Under the pieces are notes generated by a model. That model did not search any database. It saw only the letters and a program-made list of their open reading frames with translations, and was not told the origin of the DNA. From a virus, in IMG/VR virus record IMGVR_UViG_3300027659_000278, positions 1 to 20,147 of that record: 20,147 nt of DNA; one strand, 5' to 3'. Of the stretch, positions 1,603 through 17,542 are shown in pieces. The first letter of the stretch is position 1. Every line of letters starts with the position of its first letter. A program made the translations under genes and the position numbers.

Positions 1603-3282
1603 ATGGCACTATTAGGAGCATCAATTGACCCCAGCCTGTTTAGACAGGACTACTCTGGGTTTGTAAACGCAGCGAACACCAACGCTAACGCAATAACGGG
1701 GCTAGGGCAGACTATTGCTGGAGGAATTGAGAGATACGGAGAAGAAAAGCAAAACCGTAAAAAACTTGATGCTAGTATCAAAGCAAGTGTCACGGGTATT
1801 GAGAGTGCTATCAAAATGGGCAAAAGCCTTGGTATTGATATTGAATCAAGTTTGTCTCCGTATTTAGAAAAAATAAATGATCCTAATATTTCTCCTATTG
1901 AAGCAGCAGCTTATGCCCAACAAGCGTCTTCTTCAATTGGTAATGTTCTAACATTTGGCATGAAAGCCAATGATATGGATATTGAAAGAAGGAAACTAAG
2001 TCAAGACGCAGCATACAAAAATGAAGAACTTAGAATTTCGCAACAAAATGCAAATTCAAGAGCCGCAGCAGCGGCGGCAACAGGAAACAAACTAGGTGAT
2101 ATTGTTCCAGTTGCAACTCCAGAAGGAACGAGGCAAATGGTACGCAATCCAAAAACTGGTGTACTTGAGCCAATTCAAGTTGCTCCTCAATCTACGTCTG
2201 GAATTGGTGGATTACCCACACCACTCCAACCTTTCGCTAATGATTTCAACGTATTAGGAAATAAATACGGAGTAGACCCTACTCTCTTGGCGGCAATTGC
2301 AATGCATGAAACTGCAAATGGAACATCTTCAGCTTTTCGTAAGAAAAATAACGCAATGGGTGTTTCTGATGCTTCTGGGCCTGTTGAAATGGGAAGTGTG
2401 TCACAATCCATTGAAAAAATGGCATCACTTATTGGAAGTGGAATAAATCAAGGAACTGGGCCATATGCAAACGTGAAATCTATTGAAGATCTTGCAAGCG
2501 TCTACGCTCCTGTAGGTGCTGGTAATGATCCAAATAATTTGAACAAATCTTGGACTCAGGGCGTTTCCCGCAATATTGAAATGCTCACTAAAGCACCAAC
2601 TCAAGATCAAACAACAGATTTTGGGTTTACACCAAACAAACCCAAAGAAGCAGTTAAAATTGTAACTGGCGAAGAAGCTAAAGCTCTTGGACTTAAACCA
2701 GAAAATACTTACGAAGCTAAATTTGTAAACGGAGAACCTACTGGTTATACCGTGTTGGATAAAGCCGCAATACCAACTGCTGATGCTGAAAAAGCTAATG
2801 AAGCATCTTTAAGAGCTGCATCAGATGCTGCGTATGCAATTAAAACAGTAAACGAATTAACTTCTTCACCTGGTTTCTCTGATGTTTTTGGAGTAGGTAT
2901 TGGATTAAAGTACGTACCTGGAACTGCTGGATTTGATGCTGATGTATCAAGAAAGGCAATAGTTGCATTAGCTACCACTGACTCGATGAGAAAATTCCAA
3001 GGATTGGGCTCAATGTCTGATGCTGAATTTTCTGTTGCTAGATCAGCAGCAACACAAATTTCGGAGGGTGGACTTTCTGAAACAAAAGCAGCAGAAGAGT
3101 TGAATAGGCTTAGGGATTATTTCTCTACTTCAATTAGAAGAGCAGAAGAATTAGGTCGCATTCCCAAAGGGACTTCTGATAAAATGATTAGTGAAGCAAT
3201 GGCTGGAATGAACAAAACTAGTGATAGTGAAACAACGACTCCATTGACTGCCGCTCAAAAACTCAAAGCAAAAATTCAATAA
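1603..3282 (+). CDS. virion protein with glucosaminidase (lytic) domain, 559 aa
   Basis: The N-terminal ~200 residues are helical with a Q/A-rich linker. Residues about 210-325 match the phage glucosaminidase-type (lysozyme-like, LytG/GH73-related) domain: YGVDPTLLAAIAMHETANG (from residue 222, likely catalytic Glu236), KKNNAMGVSD, and a late YAPVGAGNDPNNLNKSW. This domain cleaves peptidoglycan glycan strands. The C-terminal part (about 400-520) is helical and carries a GLGSMSDAEF motif near residue 467 that recurs in phage ejection proteins. The enzyme lies among structural genes, far from the lysis genes, so I infer a virion-associated muralysin that opens the cell wall at entry. The start at 1603 lacks a Shine-Dalgarno; the gene ends 4 bases before the next ATG. 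Confidence 0.85.
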   Translation: MALLGASIDPSLFRQDYSGFVNAANTNANAITGLGQTIAGGIERYGEEKQNRKKLDASIKASVTGIESAIKMGKSLGIDIESSLSPYLEKINDPNISPIEAAAYAQQASSSIGNVLTFGMKANDMDIERRKLSQDAAYKNEELRISQQNANSRAAAAAATGNKLGDIVPVATPEGTRQMVRNPKTGVLEPIQVAPQSTSGIGGLPTPLQPFANDFNVLGNKYGVDPTLLAAIAMHETANGTSSAFRKKNNAMGVSDASGPVEMGSVSQSIEKMASLIGSGINQGTGPYANVKSIEDLASVYAPVGAGNDPNNLNKSWTQGVSRNIEMLTKAPTQDQTTDFGFTPNKPKEAVKIVTGEEAKALGLKPENTYEAKFVNGEPTGYTVLDKAAIPTADAEKANEASLRAASDAAYAIKTVNELTSSPGFSDVFGVGIGLKYVPGTAGFDADVSRKAIVALATTDSMRKFQGLGSMSDAEFSVARSAATQISEGGLSETKAAEELNRLRDYFSTSIRRAEELGRIPKGTSDKMISEAMAGMNKTSDSETTTPLTAAQKLKAKIQ

Positions 3283-3286
3283 TAAC

Positions 3287-6200
3287 ATGGCTGAACAAGT
3301 TGATCCAGAAGTCAGCAAACTTGAAGTTGATGCGTTAAATGAGTACTTTGCTGGAGAAGCAAAGAATATTGAATTAACAAAGAACAACTATCTTCCCCCA
3401 AATTGGCAGGATCTTGATCTAAATGATCCAAGGATAACTGCTGCACCGTTTAAGTTGCAACCATTCACAACTGAAGAGGGAATGAAAGCTCGTGGCATTC
3501 TGGATGCTAATGGCGAAGCAACGCAACTTGGTGAAGATTACTTACTGCTTGAAGAAAGAGGACTTTTTAAGGATGGAGAACTTACGGAAAAAGGTAAGGC
3601 TTTTACAACTGAAAACGAAATATATGACACCGTAAATTTTGTTGAGAAGAACATGGATGCTAGTCAACTTGCTCAAGAGGCAAGACTACATTCAATTCGT
3701 GAGGAAGCAGGTCTTACCAAAGAAAGCATGGTATCAGAAGATGGTATGCTTGCTGACTTCTGGAATGGAATCAAAGGATTGGCGACTGGTGCTGATACAA
3801 TTTTACGAGGCACAGTACCAAACTCAAGTGATCTAGCAAAAAATAGAATTCCTAAAGATGCATCTCTTCTAGAGGCCATAAGTGACATGATGGCAAGCGG
3901 AAAGTCTAAAGAAGAAGTAACAACAGCAAGGGCAGAAGCTGCAAGCAAGTTTGTGGGTGGATCTGCAACTGGTCTTGTAAAAGGTGCTGAACTACTTCAA
4001 AATTTAGGAGCGAATGTTGGCGAAGCACTAGGACTTTATTCACCAGAAGAAGCAAAAGCAGGTAAGGAGCAAGCATCCTATAAAACAGAGATGTTTAAGC
4101 GAACCTATGCTGGTATTGATGCAGCAGAGTTTGCATCTCAAGTTGGGCTTGCCGAAGAGGTTGGTAACGCTGTTTTTGAAACAAAAAAACAATACGATGC
4201 TCAATATGGTGAAAAAGGAACAGAAGAATTCCAAAAAGCATTAAATAACTATGGATCTGTGGGTACTGTTGCGGGAGATCCAATAGCTCTTGCTATCGGT
4301 GGAGGTGTTGGAACAGCTATCGGCTTGGTTAAATATGCCAATGCCGCAAGAAACGCCACCAAAATAGCACAAGGTATGGCGGCAGTAAATGCTGGTAATT
4401 CATTACTCAAAGCTAAACCAATTGCTGAAGCTGCATTTATTGAATCTCAAACAGCTATAACTAATGCAAACAAACTTCTTGATGATGCTTTTAAAACTGG
4501 AAATCCAGAACAATTTGCATTAAGATCAGGAGAAGTAGCAAAAGCTACACAAGCGGCAAAACAAACAGAATCTACTCTTGCAACTATCAATGAAGGTATT
4601 GCTAACGCCTCAACATTTGCAAACAAGGTTGAGATAGGATTGGATAGTGCAAGAACTGTTCAAGACGTTGTTCGCGGTGCAGGTGCAGCAACAATGGGTA
4701 AAGCCGCAAGCGTATTGGATTCTGTTGGCAACAAGGCCGCAAGCCTTAATGGTTTTGTGAAAGTAATAGAGAGAAAAATGGGTATAACCAAAATACCTTG
4801 GCTAGTCAGGGTTCTTGCCTCTGTTCCATATTCACAAGTAGCTATACCATATCTTGGAGCAAGAATTGGAATTGCTGTTGCACCCAAAGTTCTTAAAAAC
4901 GTGTCTAAATTCGCCTCAGTTATGAGCGAAGAAATGGTAGAACGTACTAGCTCAACTCCATTCTTTAGACGGGTTGCTGCTAACGAAAGGGTTGGTGGAC
5001 TGGGTGGTGCATTAGCAACCATTGCAGACTACTCCTCACCGCTTGCAAGGGGCGTTGCTAGAGCTACAGTTGGAACAGCTATAGCAGCACCAGCAACGCT
5101 TGCTTACAATGCTATTAACAGCAAAGGTGTTGATGAGGAAACTCTAGCACTTGCTGGAAGAGACGCATTAGTATTTGGTGGTCTAGGTAGGCTTGTTGGA
5201 GGCAGAAAAGACTTTAGTCAAACCAAGATTGACGAGATGGTCAACTACCGCAATAAACTTACCCCAGAAAATCTTGCGATATACGATGGTATCAAAGATC
5301 GCGGAATGAGGACATTTGTTTCCTCTCTTGATGCAGCATACCCTGGTTTCTTTGAATGGGAATTTAAGAATAGCGGAAATAACTTTTTTGACCCAGCATC
5401 AAGAAAAGCAGTTGTTAATTTAAATGATCGGGCTGGATTTTTAAAAGCAGTTGCGGCACATGAAGTTGGACACATGATTCAATTTAGGCACAATAACAAT
5501 GACATGATTGTCTCAAGAATGCTTGGAGACGAAACACAAAGCGGCCTTGTAAGGAACGTAGATGGAACGCTAGATCCAGAGTTCAAAGCATGGGGCGACG
5601 AATACAATAATCTTAGGAGGGATAACGACATTGCTCCAGCAGGTCTTGAAGAACTAGCTATTGAGTTCTATACCGATAATGGCGTTAGGGCATTGGTTGA
5701 AGACGTATCAAGCGGTAAGTTATTCCAACAATCAAGAAAGACTCCATTGAGACGGGATATTGAAAATAGTTTTAAAAACTTGTTTGCCTCTGCACCGATT
5801 GTTAAAAACCTACACTTTAAGTTTGGTGGAGCAACGGATGCGGGTGGACGTATGGTAATGGGTACAGGGTTACTTGCAGACGGCATGAGAGAACTGCCAG
5901 AGGTCAAGGAGATGCTTAGACAGGCATACAAGGATACTGCTGGGAAACCATTGAAACAAGTCAACAACAGGGTTCTAGATGTTAAATCTACTAATCCTAG
6001 CCACTACGAAGCAAGGGAAACAATCAATAAAACTAATAAAAGGATTGTTGATGCGGGAGAGAAGTTGCCAGAAAATATAATAGTGGTTGACTCAAATGGC
6101 AATGGACGAGGACAACTTAGTATTGATCATTTCAAAGATCTTGAAGAGCGTGGCGTTATTGATAATGGCACATTTGGCATGGCTGCAATGCTTCAAGAAC

Positions 6201-7648
6201 AAATCAATAGTGAAAACAAGTTTGCCGTAAGCACGGTAAACAAGCCAATCGAACAAGGAAGATCAGTTCAAGTTGAAGGATTGGCAGAAGGCCTTGTTGT
6301 GCCAACTGGATGGGTTTCTCGCAATGGCAGATTATATCTGGAAGCTATGGATCTAAAGCAGTTGGAAAAAAACGTACAACGCGCAGTTAAGAATCCTATT
6401 GCAAAAAAACTCAACTTGAATAGGCAGCAAATTCTTGATGACATCCAAGAATCAGTTGCGATACAAAACAAGGGTCAGTCTACGGATGCTTACTATAAAA
6501 GCAAAGATCCTAAAAATTGGGAGCGGCGTAAAAACTTCATCAACTCAGTTCTTGGATTGCAGACAAAGAAGCAACTTACAATAAACCCGTTGATGAGCAA
6601 GGTGTCTCCAGACTTAGAATCTGGCATATTTAGAACATTTGCTTTTGATCGCTTACAAAGTGCAATCCAAACAAATAGCAATGTAAGCATACCATTTGGT
6701 GCTAATTCTTACTACGCTATCCGTGATAACTTGTTGCCGCAATCTCCTCGCTTTAACCGCAACGGAGAACTTGTGCCAGAGACAAGTAAAATTAACTACC
6801 TGCCAAATAGTGTTTATGAGAAAATTATGTCAAAGTATAAAGACACTCCAAGTACGGCAGTTACTGAAAATAAAAGAGTCTACTCACCAATTGTTCGTGA
6901 CCTACTTCAGAGGAGGAAAGCTGGAGAGGAAATTCCTAAGGTAGTCATGGATCGTGCAATTAATGAGCATTTCCCATCTTATAAAGTAGAAGTTCCTAAA
7001 TCACCATCTGATCTTCCTTCTGAAGCTAAAGTACTAGCTACTATTGATAAAGGTCAAAGAAAAAAACATTTACAAACAATTAAAGAAGCAGGTCTTCCCA
7101 AAGAAGGTGAGAGTATAATGGTTCGTCAAGATGTTCCATCGATGACTAAAAAAGGAGTAGGTGTTGTAACAACAACAACAGATAATGGAACTTTATATCG
7201 TCCAAGCACTAGGATATCAAAACCTAACTTCATACTAAATGAAGTGCAAACCGAGAAGATCGGTATGGGTGGAGATAAACAACCACACATTGTAGTTAAA
7301 GGTAAATGGATGGAAGACCAAAGTTTCCCTGAAAACTTATCAGAATGGACTCAAGTTGGATTCAATCCAGATAGACATTCGTACTATTACGAACGTGGGA
7401 CTAATAGGATGGTTATTAGTGGAGATGAGGCACTTCAAATTGGTAACACTGTGTTTGTTAATAATCCAAAGTATGGAGACAATCTAGACCCTAATAAACC
7501 ACTTCGCTATCTGCCAAAGAGTAAATCCAAAACAAACCAACCAGAATTCAGGACTACTCGTCGCAGTGATAAGAAATACAATAATCCTGCCCTTGCCAGA
7601 AGCATATCGTCAGCTATAAGTGGTGCTTCAACCAACAAGGAAAAATAA
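3287..7648 (+). CDS. giant internal virion protein with HEVGH metallopeptidase domain and polyvalent-type C-terminus
   Basis: At 1453 residues this is the largest gene. The first ~320 residues are acidic and helical. Three hydrophobic, Gly/Ala-rich stretches (about 325-350, 502-545 and 570-615) could insert in membranes. Residues 725-729 read HEVGH inside AAHEVGHMIQF, the zinc-peptidase HExxH signature; EELAIE at 788-793 may supply the third ligand as in gluzincins. The C-terminus (about 1260-1395) has the block WTQVGFNPDRHSYYY followed by a GDEALQIGNTVFVNNPKYG-like strand, which I recall from large polyvalent proteins of phages and plasmids. Such proteins travel with the DNA into the host. 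A proteolytic role on host or virion proteins is inferred from the motif. Codons are A/T-rich (18 of 60 GC at 4201-4260). Confidence 0.85.
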   Translation: MAEQVDPEVSKLEVDALNEYFAGEAKNIELTKNNYLPPNWQDLDLNDPRITAAPFKLQPFTTEEGMKARGILDANGEATQLGEDYLLLEERGLFKDGELTEKGKAFTTENEIYDTVNFVEKNMDASQLAQEARLHSIREEAGLTKESMVSEDGMLADFWNGIKGLATGADTILRGTVPNSSDLAKNRIPKDASLLEAISDMMASGKSKEEVTTARAEAASKFVGGSATGLVKGAELLQNLGANVGEALGLYSPEEAKAGKEQASYKTEMFKRTYAGIDAAEFASQVGLAEEVGNAVFETKKQYDAQYGEKGTEEFQKALNNYGSVGTVAGDPIALAIGGGVGTAIGLVKYANAARNATKIAQGMAAVNAGNSLLKAKPIAEAAFIESQTAITNANKLLDDAFKTGNPEQFALRSGEVAKATQAAKQTESTLATINEGIANASTFANKVEIGLDSARTVQDVVRGAGAATMGKAASVLDSVGNKAASLNGFVKVIERKMGITKIPWLVRVLASVPYSQVAIPYLGARIGIAVAPKVLKNVSKFASVMSEEMVERTSSTPFFRRVAANERVGGLGGALATIADYSSPLARGVARATVGTAIAAPATLAYNAINSKGVDEETLALAGRDALVFGGLGRLVGGRKDFSQTKIDEMVNYRNKLTPENLAIYDGIKDRGMRTFVSSLDAAYPGFFEWEFKNSGNNFFDPASRKAVVNLNDRAGFLKAVAAHEVGHMIQFRHNNNDMIVSRMLGDETQSGLVRNVDGTLDPEFKAWGDEYNNLRRDNDIAPAGLEELAIEFYTDNGVRALVEDVSSGKLFQQSRKTPLRRDIENSFKNLFASAPIVKNLHFKFGGATDAGGRMVMGTGLLADGMRELPEVKEMLRQAYKDTAGKPLKQVNNRVLDVKSTNPSHYEARETINKTNKRIVDAGEKLPENIIVVDSNGNGRGQLSIDHFKDLEERGVIDNGTFGMAAMLQEQINSENKFAVSTVNKPIEQGRSVQVEGLAEGLVVPTGWVSRNGRLYLEAMDLKQLEKNVQRAVKNPIAKKLNLNRQQILDDIQESVAIQNKGQSTDAYYKSKDPKNWERRKNFINSVLGLQTKKQLTINPLMSKVSPDLESGIFRTFAFDRLQSAIQTNSNVSIPFGANSYYAIRDNLLPQSPRFNRNGELVPETSKINYLPNSVYEKIMSKYKDTPSTAVTENKRVYSPIVRDLLQRRKAGEEIPKVVMDRAINEHFPSYKVEVPKSPSDLPSEAKVLATIDKGQRKKHLQTIKEAGLPKEGESIMVRQDVPSMTKKGVGVVTTTTDNGTLYRPSTRISKPNFILNEVQTEKIGMGGDKQPHIVVKGKWMEDQSFPENLSEWTQVGFNPDRHSYYYERGTNRMVISGDEALQIGNTVFVNNPKYGDNLDPNKPLRYLPKSKSKTNQPEFRTTRRSDKKYNNPALARSISSAISGASTNKEK
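7637..7641 (+). promoter_or_regulatory. Shine-Dalgarno deciding the terS start
   Basis: AAGGA lies 8 bases upstream of the ATG at 7650. It favours that ATG over an in-frame GTG at 7620 that would overlap the preceding gene by 29 bases. It is one of the few clear ribosome-binding sites in the window. Confidence 0.6.
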
Positions 7649-7649
7649 C

Positions 7650-8201
7650 ATGAGTGACAACGAACTTCTTGAGATTGACAGTAAACAGGCAATTAAGGAG
7701 TTCTTTCTTGAGGTTAAGGAACGTGCGAAGCTATTCCCGCGCAACTCAATCGAGCATTACAATCCAAACGTAGCTGCACAAATCTTATGGATGCTTGCAC
7801 AAGGTGGACGTATTAGCGTAATTGCTAAGAAGTGCAAAGTATCGCATGAGCTAGTAAGGTCGCTAGAATGGCGGCATAACGACACGCTTGAGTCAAAGCG
7901 TAAGGAGTTCTCTAAACGCTACGCTATTGCTGCGGCTGAGTACACCGATCTATTGTTCGAGAAAGCAGAACAATTATCCAACGACCCAGAGCAATTAAAG
8001 ATGATCTCGCCAGACCGTCTTGCTTTGACTATTGGCATTATGACAGACAAAGCTGGGCAACTATCTGGTATGGCAAGCACAATCGTAGAACATCGTAAGG
8101 GTGCAAGTATTGACGATGCTGCTAAGATGATTGCTGAAGCAAAGTCTCGCATTGCCAATAAAATCAAGGAACAAGCAATTGAAGTTGAAGTTATTGAATA
8201 A
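7650..8201 (+). CDS. terS: terminase small subunit
   Basis: The 183-residue product has an N-terminal helix-turn-helix-like region (GGRISVIAKKCKVSHELVRSLEWRH, split here as GGRISVIAKKC and VSHELVRSLEW, about residues 52-75) followed by a long helical region and a C-terminal block SPDRLALTIGIMTDKAGQ with SGMASTIVEHR, which is typical of small terminases. TerS oligomers bind the packaging site and regulate TerL. The ATG at 7650 is preceded by AAGGA. The upstream gene ends one base before it, and the stop TAA at 8199-8201 shares its last base with the terL ATG. Position directly before the large terminase strengthens the call. The sequence gives no evidence for the packaging site or strategy (cos or headful). 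Confidence 0.85.
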   Translation: MSDNELLEIDSKQAIKEFFLEVKERAKLFPRNSIEHYNPNVAAQILWMLAQGGRISVIAKKCKVSHELVRSLEWRHNDTLESKRKEFSKRYAIAAAEYTDLLFEKAEQLSNDPEQLKMISPDRLALTIGIMTDKAGQLSGMASTIVEHRKGASIDDAAKMIAEAKSRIANKIKEQAIEVEVIE

Positions 8202-9799
8202 TGCAATGGCGTAATCATGCAATATTGCAACCTCCGTCAGACGACGATATCTGTGCAATGGAACCAGATGAGCTTATGGACATCCATAAGGTTTATCACG
8301 AAGCTATTGATAACGCCGAAAGAGATCCGTACAGGTATGGATTCAGATTGCCGCATTGGCAAAAAGCAGAAGAGCAACTTTCGCAAGTCTCTGAGGTTCT
8401 GGCACTTGGCGGTAATCGCAGTGGAAAAACTGCCTGGGGTTCCTATTGCGTAGTCAAAGCTGCAATTGAAAATCCTAAGTCTGAGATCTTCTGCTTCTCA
8501 CAAACATCCGAGGTTAGCATACGCCAGCAACAAAGTGCAGTATGGAACTGGATTCCCAACGAGTTGCGTACTAAGCAAACATCAGCAAACGCATACATCT
8601 CGTACACTAAAAAGAACGGATTTACAGACAATTCGTTGATTTTCCCCAATGGTTCGCAGATCATTTTCAAGACGTACTCACAGTATCAGAATAATCCGAC
8701 GATCCTAGAAGGTGCTGAACTTGGCAGCAAAGACCCTAAATGGCACAATATTGGAGTATGGCTCGACGAATACTTATTAGGAAATGAGCTGATTGACACA
8801 CTTCGATTTCGACTTGCGACTAGAAATTCAAAGTTGCTACTTACTTTCACTCCGATTGACGGATGGACAGAAGTCATCAAGGAGTATCTAGACGGTGCTA
8901 CAACCATTGAGAACGTCAAAGCTGAGTTGCTAAACGACGAGATCGTTCCATACGTCCAACGCAGTAAGAAGCGCAATGCTAGCGTCCATTACTTCCACTC
9001 TAAGGATAACCCATTTGGTGGCTACGAGCGTATCAAGGAAACTTTGATGGGTAGGTCAAGGGAAGAAATACTTATCCGAGCATACGGAGTACCAGTAAAG
9101 TCTCATGCTACAAAGTTCCCCCGATTCAACAAGGAAGTCAATGTTGTCAAACCTCAAGAAATACCAACAACCAATGTCACAAGGTATCACATTATCGACC
9201 CCGCTGGTGCTAAAAACTGGTTTATGTGCTGGATTGCCGTTGACGAATCAAATACATACTGGGTATACCGTGAATGGCCTGGGGTTGACGTTGGTGACTG
9301 GGCTGAATGGCGTGGAGGCAAGTGGGTTGGTGGAGCTGGATCAAAGGGACAAGGATTTGGTATAAAAGACTACGTTGACACAATCCTAGAACTTGAAGAA
9401 GGCGAAGAGATATTTGAGCGACTCATCGACCCAAGACTTGGTGCTGCAAAATACCAAGCAGCAGATAGTTCATCGAGCATCATCGAAGATCTGAACGAGC
9501 AGGAGATTATTTGCATACCTGCACCTGGAATGGAAATTGATGATGGTCTACAAGCGTTGATCTCAAAAATGTCATGGGATACAACTAAACCCATAGATTC
9601 AGTAAATAGACCACATTTCTACGTCAGTTCTGACTGCGAGAACATTATACAAGCACTTTCCGAGTACACTGGCGAGGGTGGATTAAAGGAAGCGTGGAAA
9701 GATCCGATTGACGTATTGCGATATGCTGCTATTGCTGGTGTTGACCATGTTGATGAATCAAGGTCTTACTGCACAAGGCAAGGTTCTGGGGGATACTAA
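8201..9799 (+). CDS. terL: terminase large subunit (ATPase/nuclease)
   Basis: This is the packaging motor: an ATPase that pumps DNA through the portal and a nuclease that cuts concatemers. Residues 70-77 are Walker A (GGNRSGKT), 186-190 are Walker B (VWLDE), and LTFTPIDG (214-221) fits the coupling motif. The C-terminal RNase H-like nuclease is indicated by HIIDPAG (Asp333), RLIDPR (Asp410) and KDPIDVLRYA (Asp501 or Asp504). The length of 532 aa is normal. The ATG overlaps the terS stop by one base, so translation is probably coupled. No Shine-Dalgarno is visible. The gene lies downstream of the ejection module and upstream of the portal, so packaging genes are embedded among structural ones. 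Confidence 0.95.
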   Translation: MQWRNHAILQPPSDDDICAMEPDELMDIHKVYHEAIDNAERDPYRYGFRLPHWQKAEEQLSQVSEVLALGGNRSGKTAWGSYCVVKAAIENPKSEIFCFSQTSEVSIRQQQSAVWNWIPNELRTKQTSANAYISYTKKNGFTDNSLIFPNGSQIIFKTYSQYQNNPTILEGAELGSKDPKWHNIGVWLDEYLLGNELIDTLRFRLATRNSKLLLTFTPIDGWTEVIKEYLDGATTIENVKAELLNDEIVPYVQRSKKRNASVHYFHSKDNPFGGYERIKETLMGRSREEILIRAYGVPVKSHATKFPRFNKEVNVVKPQEIPTTNVTRYHIIDPAGAKNWFMCWIAVDESNTYWVYREWPGVDVGDWAEWRGGKWVGGAGSKGQGFGIKDYVDTILELEEGEEIFERLIDPRLGAAKYQAADSSSSIIEDLNEQEIICIPAPGMEIDDGLQALISKMSWDTTKPIDSVNRPHFYVSSDCENIIQALSEYTGEGGLKEAWKDPIDVLRYAAIAGVDHVDESRSYCTRQGSGGY

Positions 9800-16299: not shown

Positions 16300-17142
16300 A
16301 TGGAATATTCACTTTCAAATTCACTAGTCGGCGGATCGGAATCACTCAACCCATTGGGGTTGTCACTGGACCTGCGATTTGCGGAGGACAAGAGTCTTAC
16401 TGCTCGCAAAGGACCGACTCCAACTTTTACTCGGGCAAGTACCGCTACATACTATGGTCCGCTAATTGATGTTGGTGTGTATACTTTGCAAACAATAGGT
16501 TTTTTGAGTGACCGAGCGGAGTGGTTTGTTACAGATGGAACGGATTCGATTAATGTTTATTATAGTGCTGGTAGATGGCGAGTCGAGATTTATATTGGAG
16601 GAGAATTCAATTCTTATCAAGCAGCAATTGGTAGTGAGTTTAGACCAGACGAAGCAGATTGGAGTGATGTGCCTACTAGCGTGACAGTACAGACTAGTGC
16701 GGCGTATGGGCTTGTGCTTGCAGCAACAAACGAACCTCGTTTTGACCATAATACAAGTACGTTTGTATGCAAAGGACTGCTGATCGAGGAACAAAGGACT
16801 AACTTGGTATTCCCAAGTGCAACCTTAACCACCCAAACTTGTACTGTTACAGCAACACCTCACACGCTTTCATTTTACGGAACTGGAACGGTTGTTTTGT
16901 CAGGAGTTACTGGTCCAACAACAGTCAATGGAACAGGATCTTTCCCAACAAAAACTACACTTACATTTACGCCTACTGCTGGCAGTCTTATTTTAACAGT
17001 TACAGGAATTGTAGAACTCGCACAACTAAGCAGGAGCTTTTGCAACGTCCTACATCCCGACCACCACAGCGTCCGTGGTTCGCAGTGTCGATCTTTGCAG
17101 TATTACGGGGAGTGGTTTTACATCGATTTACAACGAATCTGA
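16300..17142 (+). CDS. LamG-type tail protein, N-terminal part (frameshifted)
   Basis: The true protein is probably about 413 aa, spanning 16300-17542. The first ~243 residues include TPTFTRASTATYYGPLID, NEPRFDHNTSTFVCKGLLIE and EEQRTNL, then a Thr/Gly-rich strand region (TLTFTPTAGSLILTVTGIVE). These blocks mark phage tail proteins that end in a concanavalin A-like (LamG) domain. Residues after about 243 (from 17029, starting SRSFCNVLHPDHH) are unlike the family: the continuation is in the +1-shifted frame. A ~80-residue segment (LQTIGFLSDRAEWFV to PTSVTVQTSAAY) separates two blocks that are usually adjacent. The start has AGGTGG upstream. It is likely a tail spike or fibre that contacts host glycans; binding is inferred. 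Confidence 0.8.
   Translation: MEYSLSNSLVGGSESLNPLGLSLDLRFAEDKSLTARKGPTPTFTRASTATYYGPLIDVGVYTLQTIGFLSDRAEWFVTDGTDSINVYYSAGRWRVEIYIGGEFNSYQAAIGSEFRPDEADWSDVPTSVTVQTSAAYGLVLAATNEPRFDHNTSTFVCKGLLIEEQRTNLVFPSATLTTQTCTVTATPHTLSFYGTGTVVLSGVTGPTTVNGTGSFPTKTTLTFTPTAGSLILTVTGIVELAQLSRSFCNVLHPDHHSVRGSQCRSLQYYGEWFYIDLQRI
17026..17035 (+). other. frameshift site within the tail protein gene
   Basis: Reading changes here from frame CTA (17026-17028) to GCA (17030-17032). Skipping the A at 17029 joins ...VELAQL to AGAFATSYIPTTTASVVRSV, which is the expected family continuation. In the new frame a TAA at 17027-17029 blocks any start further upstream. The cause may be a base-calling error, a true mutation or a recoding event. 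Confidence 0.75.
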
Positions 17143-17542
17143 ACATAGTTTTTTTGTTGAAGCGTTGGCTATGAGTCACGCAAATTTTGGTTCTTATGGA
17201 GGGTTTGATAATGGATCTGCTGAACAGTCTATTATTGCTGGGTTCCCGACACCTAATAGTGTAAACTTGTGGGCAGTTGATAATTCCGTAGCTCAGCAAG
17301 TAAGTTTAGTTGTAACATTAAATCAAAACAATAAGATTGCGGGTGGATCTAAATTGAATTCTTTTCAAATCGCAGTTAACAATACATTGGGAACTGAGGA
17401 CACTAGCGGGACTATGCCAACCGCAACTGGTTTTAAAATCGGAAGATCTTGGAACAATACTACAATTAGCGGAACATACGTTCAATTTAAAGTATTCAAG
17501 AAACGTCTAACCAACGCAAAACTTCAATCGCTTACACAATGA
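17075..17542 (+). CDS. LamG-type tail protein, C-terminal part (same gene, shifted frame)
   Basis: This 155-residue frame, opening at 17030 and with a GTG at 17075 as first conventional start, completes the protein begun at 16300. It contains RSVDLCSITGSGFTSIYNES, EHSFFVEALAM, a run of beta strands, KIAGGSKLNSFQIAVNN, DTSGTMPTATGFKIGRSW and a final FKVFKKRLTNAKLQSLTQ. These are typical of the concanavalin A/LamG jelly roll at the end of phage tail proteins (cf. the SGxxPTxTxxxIGR block). There is no Shine-Dalgarno before GTG 17075, so independent expression is unlikely. The stop overlaps the next ATG (ATGA at 17539). Confidence 0.75.
   Translation: MVRSVDLCSITGSGFTSIYNESEHSFFVEALAMSHANFGSYGGFDNGSAEQSIIAGFPTPNSVNLWAVDNSVAQQVSLVVTLNQNNKIAGGSKLNSFQIAVNNTLGTEDTSGTMPTATGFKIGRSWNNTTISGTYVQFKVFKKRLTNAKLQSLTQ

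What the first reader, a model, noticed from the sequence alone, without database searches (positions are those of the whole stretch)
3287..7648. 1453-aa virion protein joining an HEVGH peptidase and a polyvalent-protein C-terminus
The sequence shows HEVGH at residues 725-729, a downstream EELAIE that could be the third zinc ligand, three Gly/Ala-rich hydrophobic stretches that could cross membranes, and a C-terminal WTQVGFNPDRHSYYY block that I recall from large polyvalent phage/plasmid proteins. A protein ejected with DNA that carries a zinc protease could process host or phage proteins at entry. The combination in one ejection protein next to a glucosaminidase protein is worth study.
Basis: partly seen in the sequence, partly recalled or inferred. 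Interest (0 to 1): 0.6.

Follow-up and report, generated by a model that had tools for sequence, protein, structure and literature searches.

The report
Phage protein with protease and swappable cargo
This phage gene encodes a large, probably virion-carried protein with a fixed body containing a zinc-protease site and an exchangeable cargo section at its end, and the short repeated motif between cargo pieces looks like something the protease might cut.

Summary
The ORF is real (1453 aa). Its HExxH and a downstream Glu (E793) are invariant in 45 aligned sequences down to about 25% identity, and the zincin region is under strong purifying selection (dN/dS 0.02-0.10). AlphaFold gives a zincin topology whose best PDB look-alikes are IrrE/PprI, ArdC and lethal factor (Z 5-7, borderline). 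Membrane-crossing stretches are not supported. Virion location is inferred from synteny only.

The larger finding: residues 1-1165 are a fixed core, and 1166-1429 is an exchangeable cassette. Near-identical phages carry unrelated cassettes between the same DNA breakpoints. Relatives carry nothing there, or up to ~1200 aa including ADP-ribosyltransferase, E3-binding and L,D-transpeptidase-like modules. Cassette seams carry R[FYL][MLV]P (44 in 19.5 kaa of extensions, 0 in 42.1 kaa of cores), conserved as protein rather than DNA. The same module elsewhere is flanked by each host protein's own motif.

Best reading: a polyvalent protein with a new zincin family, possibly cutting its cargo loose at the seams. 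The cutting is inferred, not shown.

The parts
3287..7648 (+). 1453-aa protein (polyvalent-type, inferred ejection protein)
   Evidence: syntenic homologues in ~75 IMG/VR loci
3287..6781 (+). conserved core, residues 1-1165
   Evidence: 28-95% identity to relatives over this length
5207..5731 (+). zincin-like peptidase region, residues 641-815
5459..5473 (+). HEVGH, residues 725-729 (invariant HExxH)
5663..5665 (+). E793, candidate third zinc ligand (invariant)
5810..5869 (+). most conserved stretch after the zincin, LHFKFGG..D.GG..V.G.GL (residues 842-861), role unknown; poorly predicted by AlphaFold
5990..6730 (+). WYL/SH3-like resemblance, residues about 902-1148 (structural look-alike only)
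   Evidence: Z 7.4 to BrxR; also PafBC, CapW, DriD; no Pfam support
6782..7573 (+). exchangeable cassette, residues 1166-1429
   Evidence: DNA homology to L001 and L002 stops at 6780-6804 and resumes at 7570-7574
6794..6808 (+). N-terminal seam motif NYLPN (residues 1170-1174)
6806..7471 (+). WTQVGF module, residues 1174-1395 (pLDDT 89); second half L5_gp82-like
7346..7390 (+). WTQVGFNPDRHSYYY block
7505..7519 (+). C-terminal seam motif RYLPK (residues 1407-1411)
7574..7645 (+). conserved C-terminal tail KYNNPALARSISSAISGASTNKEK
1603..3282 (+). upstream 559-aa protein with Glucosaminidase (residues 214-282); the hydrolase domain is itself swapped in relatives
7650..8201 (+). terminase small subunit-like ORF immediately downstream (listed from GTG 7620)
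8201..9799 (+). terminase large subunit

Best explanation
The protein is a phage polyvalent protein, probably carried in the virion and ejected with the DNA. A conserved core of about 1165 aa holds an N-terminal part, a zincin-type metallopeptidase (H725, H729 and E793 as zinc ligands, E726 as base) and a following globular region. Between the core and a conserved short tail sits an exchangeable cargo cassette, here the WTQVGF module. The most likely use of the peptidase is to cut the protein at the short seam motifs that flank each cargo module (here NYLPN and RYLPK; consensus R[FYL][MLV]P), releasing cargo during assembly or in the host. Shown here: invariant catalytic residues, purifying selection, cassette exchange, and seam motif enrichment. 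Inferred: virion location, ejection, protease activity, cutting at the seams, and cargo function. I put the architecture at about 0.85 and the seam-cutting step at about 0.35.
For: HExxH and E793 invariant in 45 sequences; zincin topology (N-helix, three strands, HExxH helix, Glu helix) in the model, with look-alikes IrrE/PprI, ArdC and lethal factor. dN/dS 0.02-0.10. The window, L001 and L002 share cores but have unrelated cassettes between the same breakpoints; the window's module is 73% identical to that of L010, whose core is only 30% identical. 56 extensions fall in 36 clusters, and some relatives join core to tail with no cassette. Extension modules include ART-PolyVal, E3_binding and YkuD. 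Seam motif: 44 in extensions, 0 in cores; 33 of 38 within 12 aa of a homology breakpoint against 16% at random; 28 different 12-mers and all six Arg codons; rare in neighbouring genes. The same module in other proteins is flanked on both sides by that protein's own motif (0 of 5000 permutations). Seams lie at low-pLDDT ends of the module model. Processing by zincins was proposed for polyvalent proteins in PMC5512222.
Against: No activity or virion data. Fold matches are borderline (Foldseek best E 0.46; VIA Z about 7). Seam-like repeats also occur in giant proteins with no HExxH in cis (L098, L099) and in a repeat protein of phage C75C1, so the motif need not be a zincin site. Most of the 36 cassette clusters have one or no R[FYL][MLV]P copies. 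N4 virion RNA polymerase, which also has an HExxH domain, is packaged unprocessed (PMC5512222). HSP ends may fall at seams partly because the motif itself is shared.
Confidence: 0.5

Rival explanations
1. The architecture is right but the seams are docking motifs: short linear peptides that anchor each module to another virion or host component, or mark it for translocation. The peptidase cuts something else (host proteins, or the upstream hydrolase protein).
For: Seam-like repeats exist in proteins without HExxH. Conservation is at protein level. Effector-type MPTases are a stated option in PMC5512222.
Against: The motif is nearly absent from other proteins encoded next to it, so it is not a general tag in these phages. 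Seams differ between proteins that carry the same module.
Confidence: 0.3
2. The seams are leftovers of recombination or a preferred linker with no recognition function; module exchange at linkers explains their position, and copying within a gene explains the shared motif.
For: Modules clearly recombine at these points. Within-protein similarity could come from linker duplication.
Against: 28 distinct 12-mers and six Arg codons among 44 motifs argue for selection on the peptide.
Confidence: 0.2
3. [quoted passage not shown]
For: Fold matches are borderline, including one to an HExxH oxygenase (8s5f, Z 4.6). No Pfam peptidase passes its cutoff.
Against: Invariant HExxH plus downstream Glu, and most look-alikes in that region are zincin-type proteins.
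Confidence: 0.2

Closest known systems
Polyvalent proteins (Iyer et al. 2017, PMC5512222)
   Same: Several unrelated domains in one large phage polypeptide, HExxH-plus-Glu zincin, ART-PolyVal and other effector modules in relatives; processing by zincins already proposed there.
   Different: This family has a fixed core of ~1165 aa in a fixed locus, with cargo exchange confined to one C-terminal slot before a conserved tail (in the closer relatives). Seam motifs were not found in that paper's main text (terms linker, spacer and boundary gave no hits). The zincin reaches no Pfam cutoff or PHROGs family.
N4 virion RNA polymerase (Schitoviridae)
   Same: Giant ejected protein with an internal HExxH domain (HELVH) followed by a large C-terminal region.
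   Different: No RNA polymerase domain was detected here, and the family profile does not match the N4 HExxH domain.
IrrE/PprI and ArdC zincins
   Same: Best structural look-alikes of residues 630-811 (Z 7.2 and 6.5); ArdC is also an injected plasmid protein (PMC5512222).
   Different: 10-18% identity over about 100 residues; Z below 8; no sequence-profile match.
PF25735 Phage_L5_gp82 / phrog_586
   Same: Second half of the WTQVGF module matches (16 of 38 members, best E 2.5e-6; phrog_586 9 of 38). BFVD holds small stand-alone phage proteins with part of the fold.
   Different: The window's own copy scores 16.6 bits, below the 27-bit cutoff; the N-terminal half is extra.

Membership tests
Polyvalent proteins | two or more domains of disparate kind in one polypeptide | tested here: met
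   zincin region plus unrelated WTQVGF module; relatives add ART-PolyVal, E3_binding, YkuD
Polyvalent proteins | delivered into the host with the DNA | not testable with these tools
   only synteny next to a hydrolase protein and the terminase genes
Polyvalent proteins | shares modules with other polyvalent proteins | tested here: met
   module in 63 loci including >3000-aa multidomain proteins; BFVD hits named ART-PolyVal-like, Zeta toxin, PcfJ-like
Zincin-like metallopeptidase | HExxH | tested here: met
   invariant in 45 of 45 and present in every relative extracted
Zincin-like metallopeptidase | downstream Glu ligand on a second helix | tested here: met
   E793 invariant; predicted helix 158-180 of the model holds it
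Zincin-like metallopeptidase | zincin fold matched to solved structures | tested here: inconclusive
   Z 5-7 to IrrE, ArdC, lethal factor, but Foldseek E 0.46 or worse
Zincin-like metallopeptidase | zinc-dependent proteolysis | not testable with these tools
   needs protein
Any named Pfam peptidase family | score above the curated cutoff | tested here: not met
   best DUF6782 at 17.1 bits against a cutoff of 27
N4-type virion RNA polymerase | T7-like RNA polymerase domain | tested here: not met
   no such Pfam hit in the protein
WYL domain | Pfam WYL score above cutoff | tested here: not met
   WYL E 0.27, 11.7 bits against 21.8; resemblance is structural only, Z 7.4
PF25735 Phage_L5_gp82 | score above cutoff | tested here: inconclusive
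   window copy 16.6 bits, below 27; best member E 2.5e-6

The most novel reading that the evidence does not exclude
A self-cleaving, cassette-loaded phage injection protein: one conserved core with its own zinc protease serves as a delivery body, arbitrary effector modules are loaded into one slot, and each lineage marks its module seams with its own peptide that the protease recognises, so that imported modules must acquire the local seam to be released.
Probability: 0.3. Interest if true: 0.78.

Novelty: new variant of a known kind. Interest (0 to 1): 0.58.

Why it matters
Phages are thought to inject multidomain proteins at entry, but how such modules are loaded, exchanged and released is mostly guesswork. 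This family isolates the question: a fixed core, one cargo slot with an empty version in nature, and short candidate sites. If the seams are cut, they give a readable code for finding module boundaries in giant uncharacterised phage proteins.

Tried and rejected
tblastn of the whole protein in annotated phages gave only a C-terminal hit in MW202701. The protease core gave no relatives in GTDB genomes; the module gave one short match in an Asaia MAG, so no host could be assigned. The module had no match in plasmids. PDB sequence search found nothing for the core profile and only one weak hit for the module profile (E 0.55). The module had no PDB fold match (Foldseek best E 1.1; VIA at most Z 2.1). 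The nearest TerL match among annotated phages, C75C1 (43% identity), has no zincin core in the three large proteins checked: no HExxH and no credible profile match. Membership in N4 vRNAP was tested and rejected. A DNA-level recombination site as the cause of the seam was rejected by codon diversity. The WYL reading rests on structure alone and is not claimed. Papers searched did not turn up a description of the seam motif, in a library that lacks most subscription journals.

Full report
Observation. The ORF at 3287-7648 encodes 1453 aa. HExxH would be expected 0.006 times by composition.

Relatives. Scans of IMG/VR found close relatives, distant ones, and then about 80 loci with an alignment query. 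I extracted the gene from them. Every extracted relative has an HExxH. In 45 sequences aligned over residues 630-1165, H725, E726, H729 and E793 are invariant at identities down to 25%. Between close relatives dN/dS in the zincin region is 0.02-0.10 and in 816-1165 it is 0.04-0.08, so the domain is maintained.

Fold. AlphaFold on the 45-sequence alignment gave mean pLDDT 72, with about 70-86 over most of the zincin part and the order helix, three strands, HExxH helix, later helix with E793. This matches the MPTase core described in PMC5512222. Foldseek hits are weak (best E 0.46) but led by PprI and ArdC; VIA-align puts IrrE/PprI at Z 7.2, ArdC 6.5, lethal factor 5.4 and selecase 5.3. These Z-values are below the level the tool treats as safe. 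Residues about 902-1148 resemble WYL domains (Z 7.4), without sequence support. I had no coordinates of the model, so the clustering of the three ligands in space was not measured.

C-terminal module. The WTQVGF block is part of a ~220-aa module found in 63 loci, many encoding proteins of 1700 to more than 3000 aa. Its model is confident (pLDDT 89), unmatched in the PDB but matched in predicted viral proteins with names such as PcfJ-like, Zeta toxin, LT_GEWL and ART-PolyVal-like, and in small stand-alone phage proteins. Its second half resembles PF25735 L5_gp82 in 16 of 38 members.

Cassette exchange. Aligned to L001 and L002, the protein is 88-95% identical over 1-1165, unrelated over 1166-1429, and again alike in the last 24 residues. 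At the DNA level homology stops at 6780-6804 and resumes at 7570-7574 against both relatives. L010 carries the same module at 73% identity on a core only 30% identical, so modules move between distant lineages. Across the family the extension beyond the core ranges from 5 to 1209 aa; 56 extensions form 36 clusters, and several relatives join core to tail with nothing between. Modules found include ART-PolyVal (best E 4e-13), E3_binding, YkuD and a weak GNAT. Synteny with the upstream protein and the terminase genes recurs throughout the loci, and the upstream protein also swaps its hydrolase: Glucosaminidase in the window and L037, Phage_lysozyme in L002, none recognised in others.

Seams. Module boundaries carry R[FYL][MLV]P followed by E, Q or K: 44 in 19,472 aa of extensions, none in 42,101 aa of cores. 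In neighbouring genes there are 9 matches in 122,487 aa, two of which are the L010 extension itself counted from an earlier start. Of 38 internal motifs 33 lie within 12 aa of a homology breakpoint, against 16% of random positions; the 44 copies are encoded by 28 different 12-mers using all six Arg codons, so the peptide and not the DNA is conserved. Two cautions: the pattern was chosen after looking at the extensions, and BLAST alignments may end at seams partly because the motif is shared. The same WTQVGF module in other phage proteins has other flanks: RFQP, YAxT, AASLD, YSIG, YSIRE, DITYSL, GYVPNF. Flanks before and after the module agree within a protein more than between proteins (mean score 21.4 against 16.2, permutation sd 0.70, 0 of 5000; 22 proteins); related proteins remain in that set, so the count is not a strict probability.

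Mechanism. A zincin in a modular protein with protein-specific seam peptides fits self-processing, which PMC5512222 proposed in general terms. Against it, proteins such as L098 and L099 have seams and no HExxH, a C75C1 protein has similar repeats without an HExxH in the part read, and the N4 enzyme is packaged uncut. I rate seam cutting at about 0.35, docking motif about 0.3, recombination residue about 0.2.

Verdict. It is a new variant of polyvalent proteins: a zincin family matched by no library searched here, on a fixed core with an exchangeable cargo slot and a seam motif that I did not find described.

Noticed in passing
1603-3282: The upstream protein swaps its peptidoglycan hydrolase between close relatives: Glucosaminidase here and in L037, Phage_lysozyme in L002, none recognised in others.
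   Followed up: partly
5810-5869: LHFKFGG..D.GG..V.G.GL (residues 842-861) is among the most conserved parts of the family, including an invariant His843, but AlphaFold gives it pLDDT under 50.
   Followed up: no
16300-17542: Two overlapping ORFs (16300-17142 and 17075-17542) look like one gene broken by a frameshift, real or an assembly error.
   Followed up: no
L009:3886-4689; also L037, L040, L043, L052, L053, L090: A recurrent ORF of about 267 aa (MTKLEKTKELI...CWSGGKDSMVLLH, PAPS-reductase-like by eye) sits upstream of the hydrolase protein in many relatives.
   Followed up: no
L156:1-7576 (phage C75C1, OQ984151): A giant protein of a phage with a related terminase repeats Y.[LAM]P[DE]F.V about ten times (by eye), resembling the seam motifs although no HExxH was seen in the part read.
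   Followed up: no
L109: A protein from a 174-kb viral contig repeats PNFA (often [VI]PNFA, GGYVPNFA) six times between segments.
   Followed up: no
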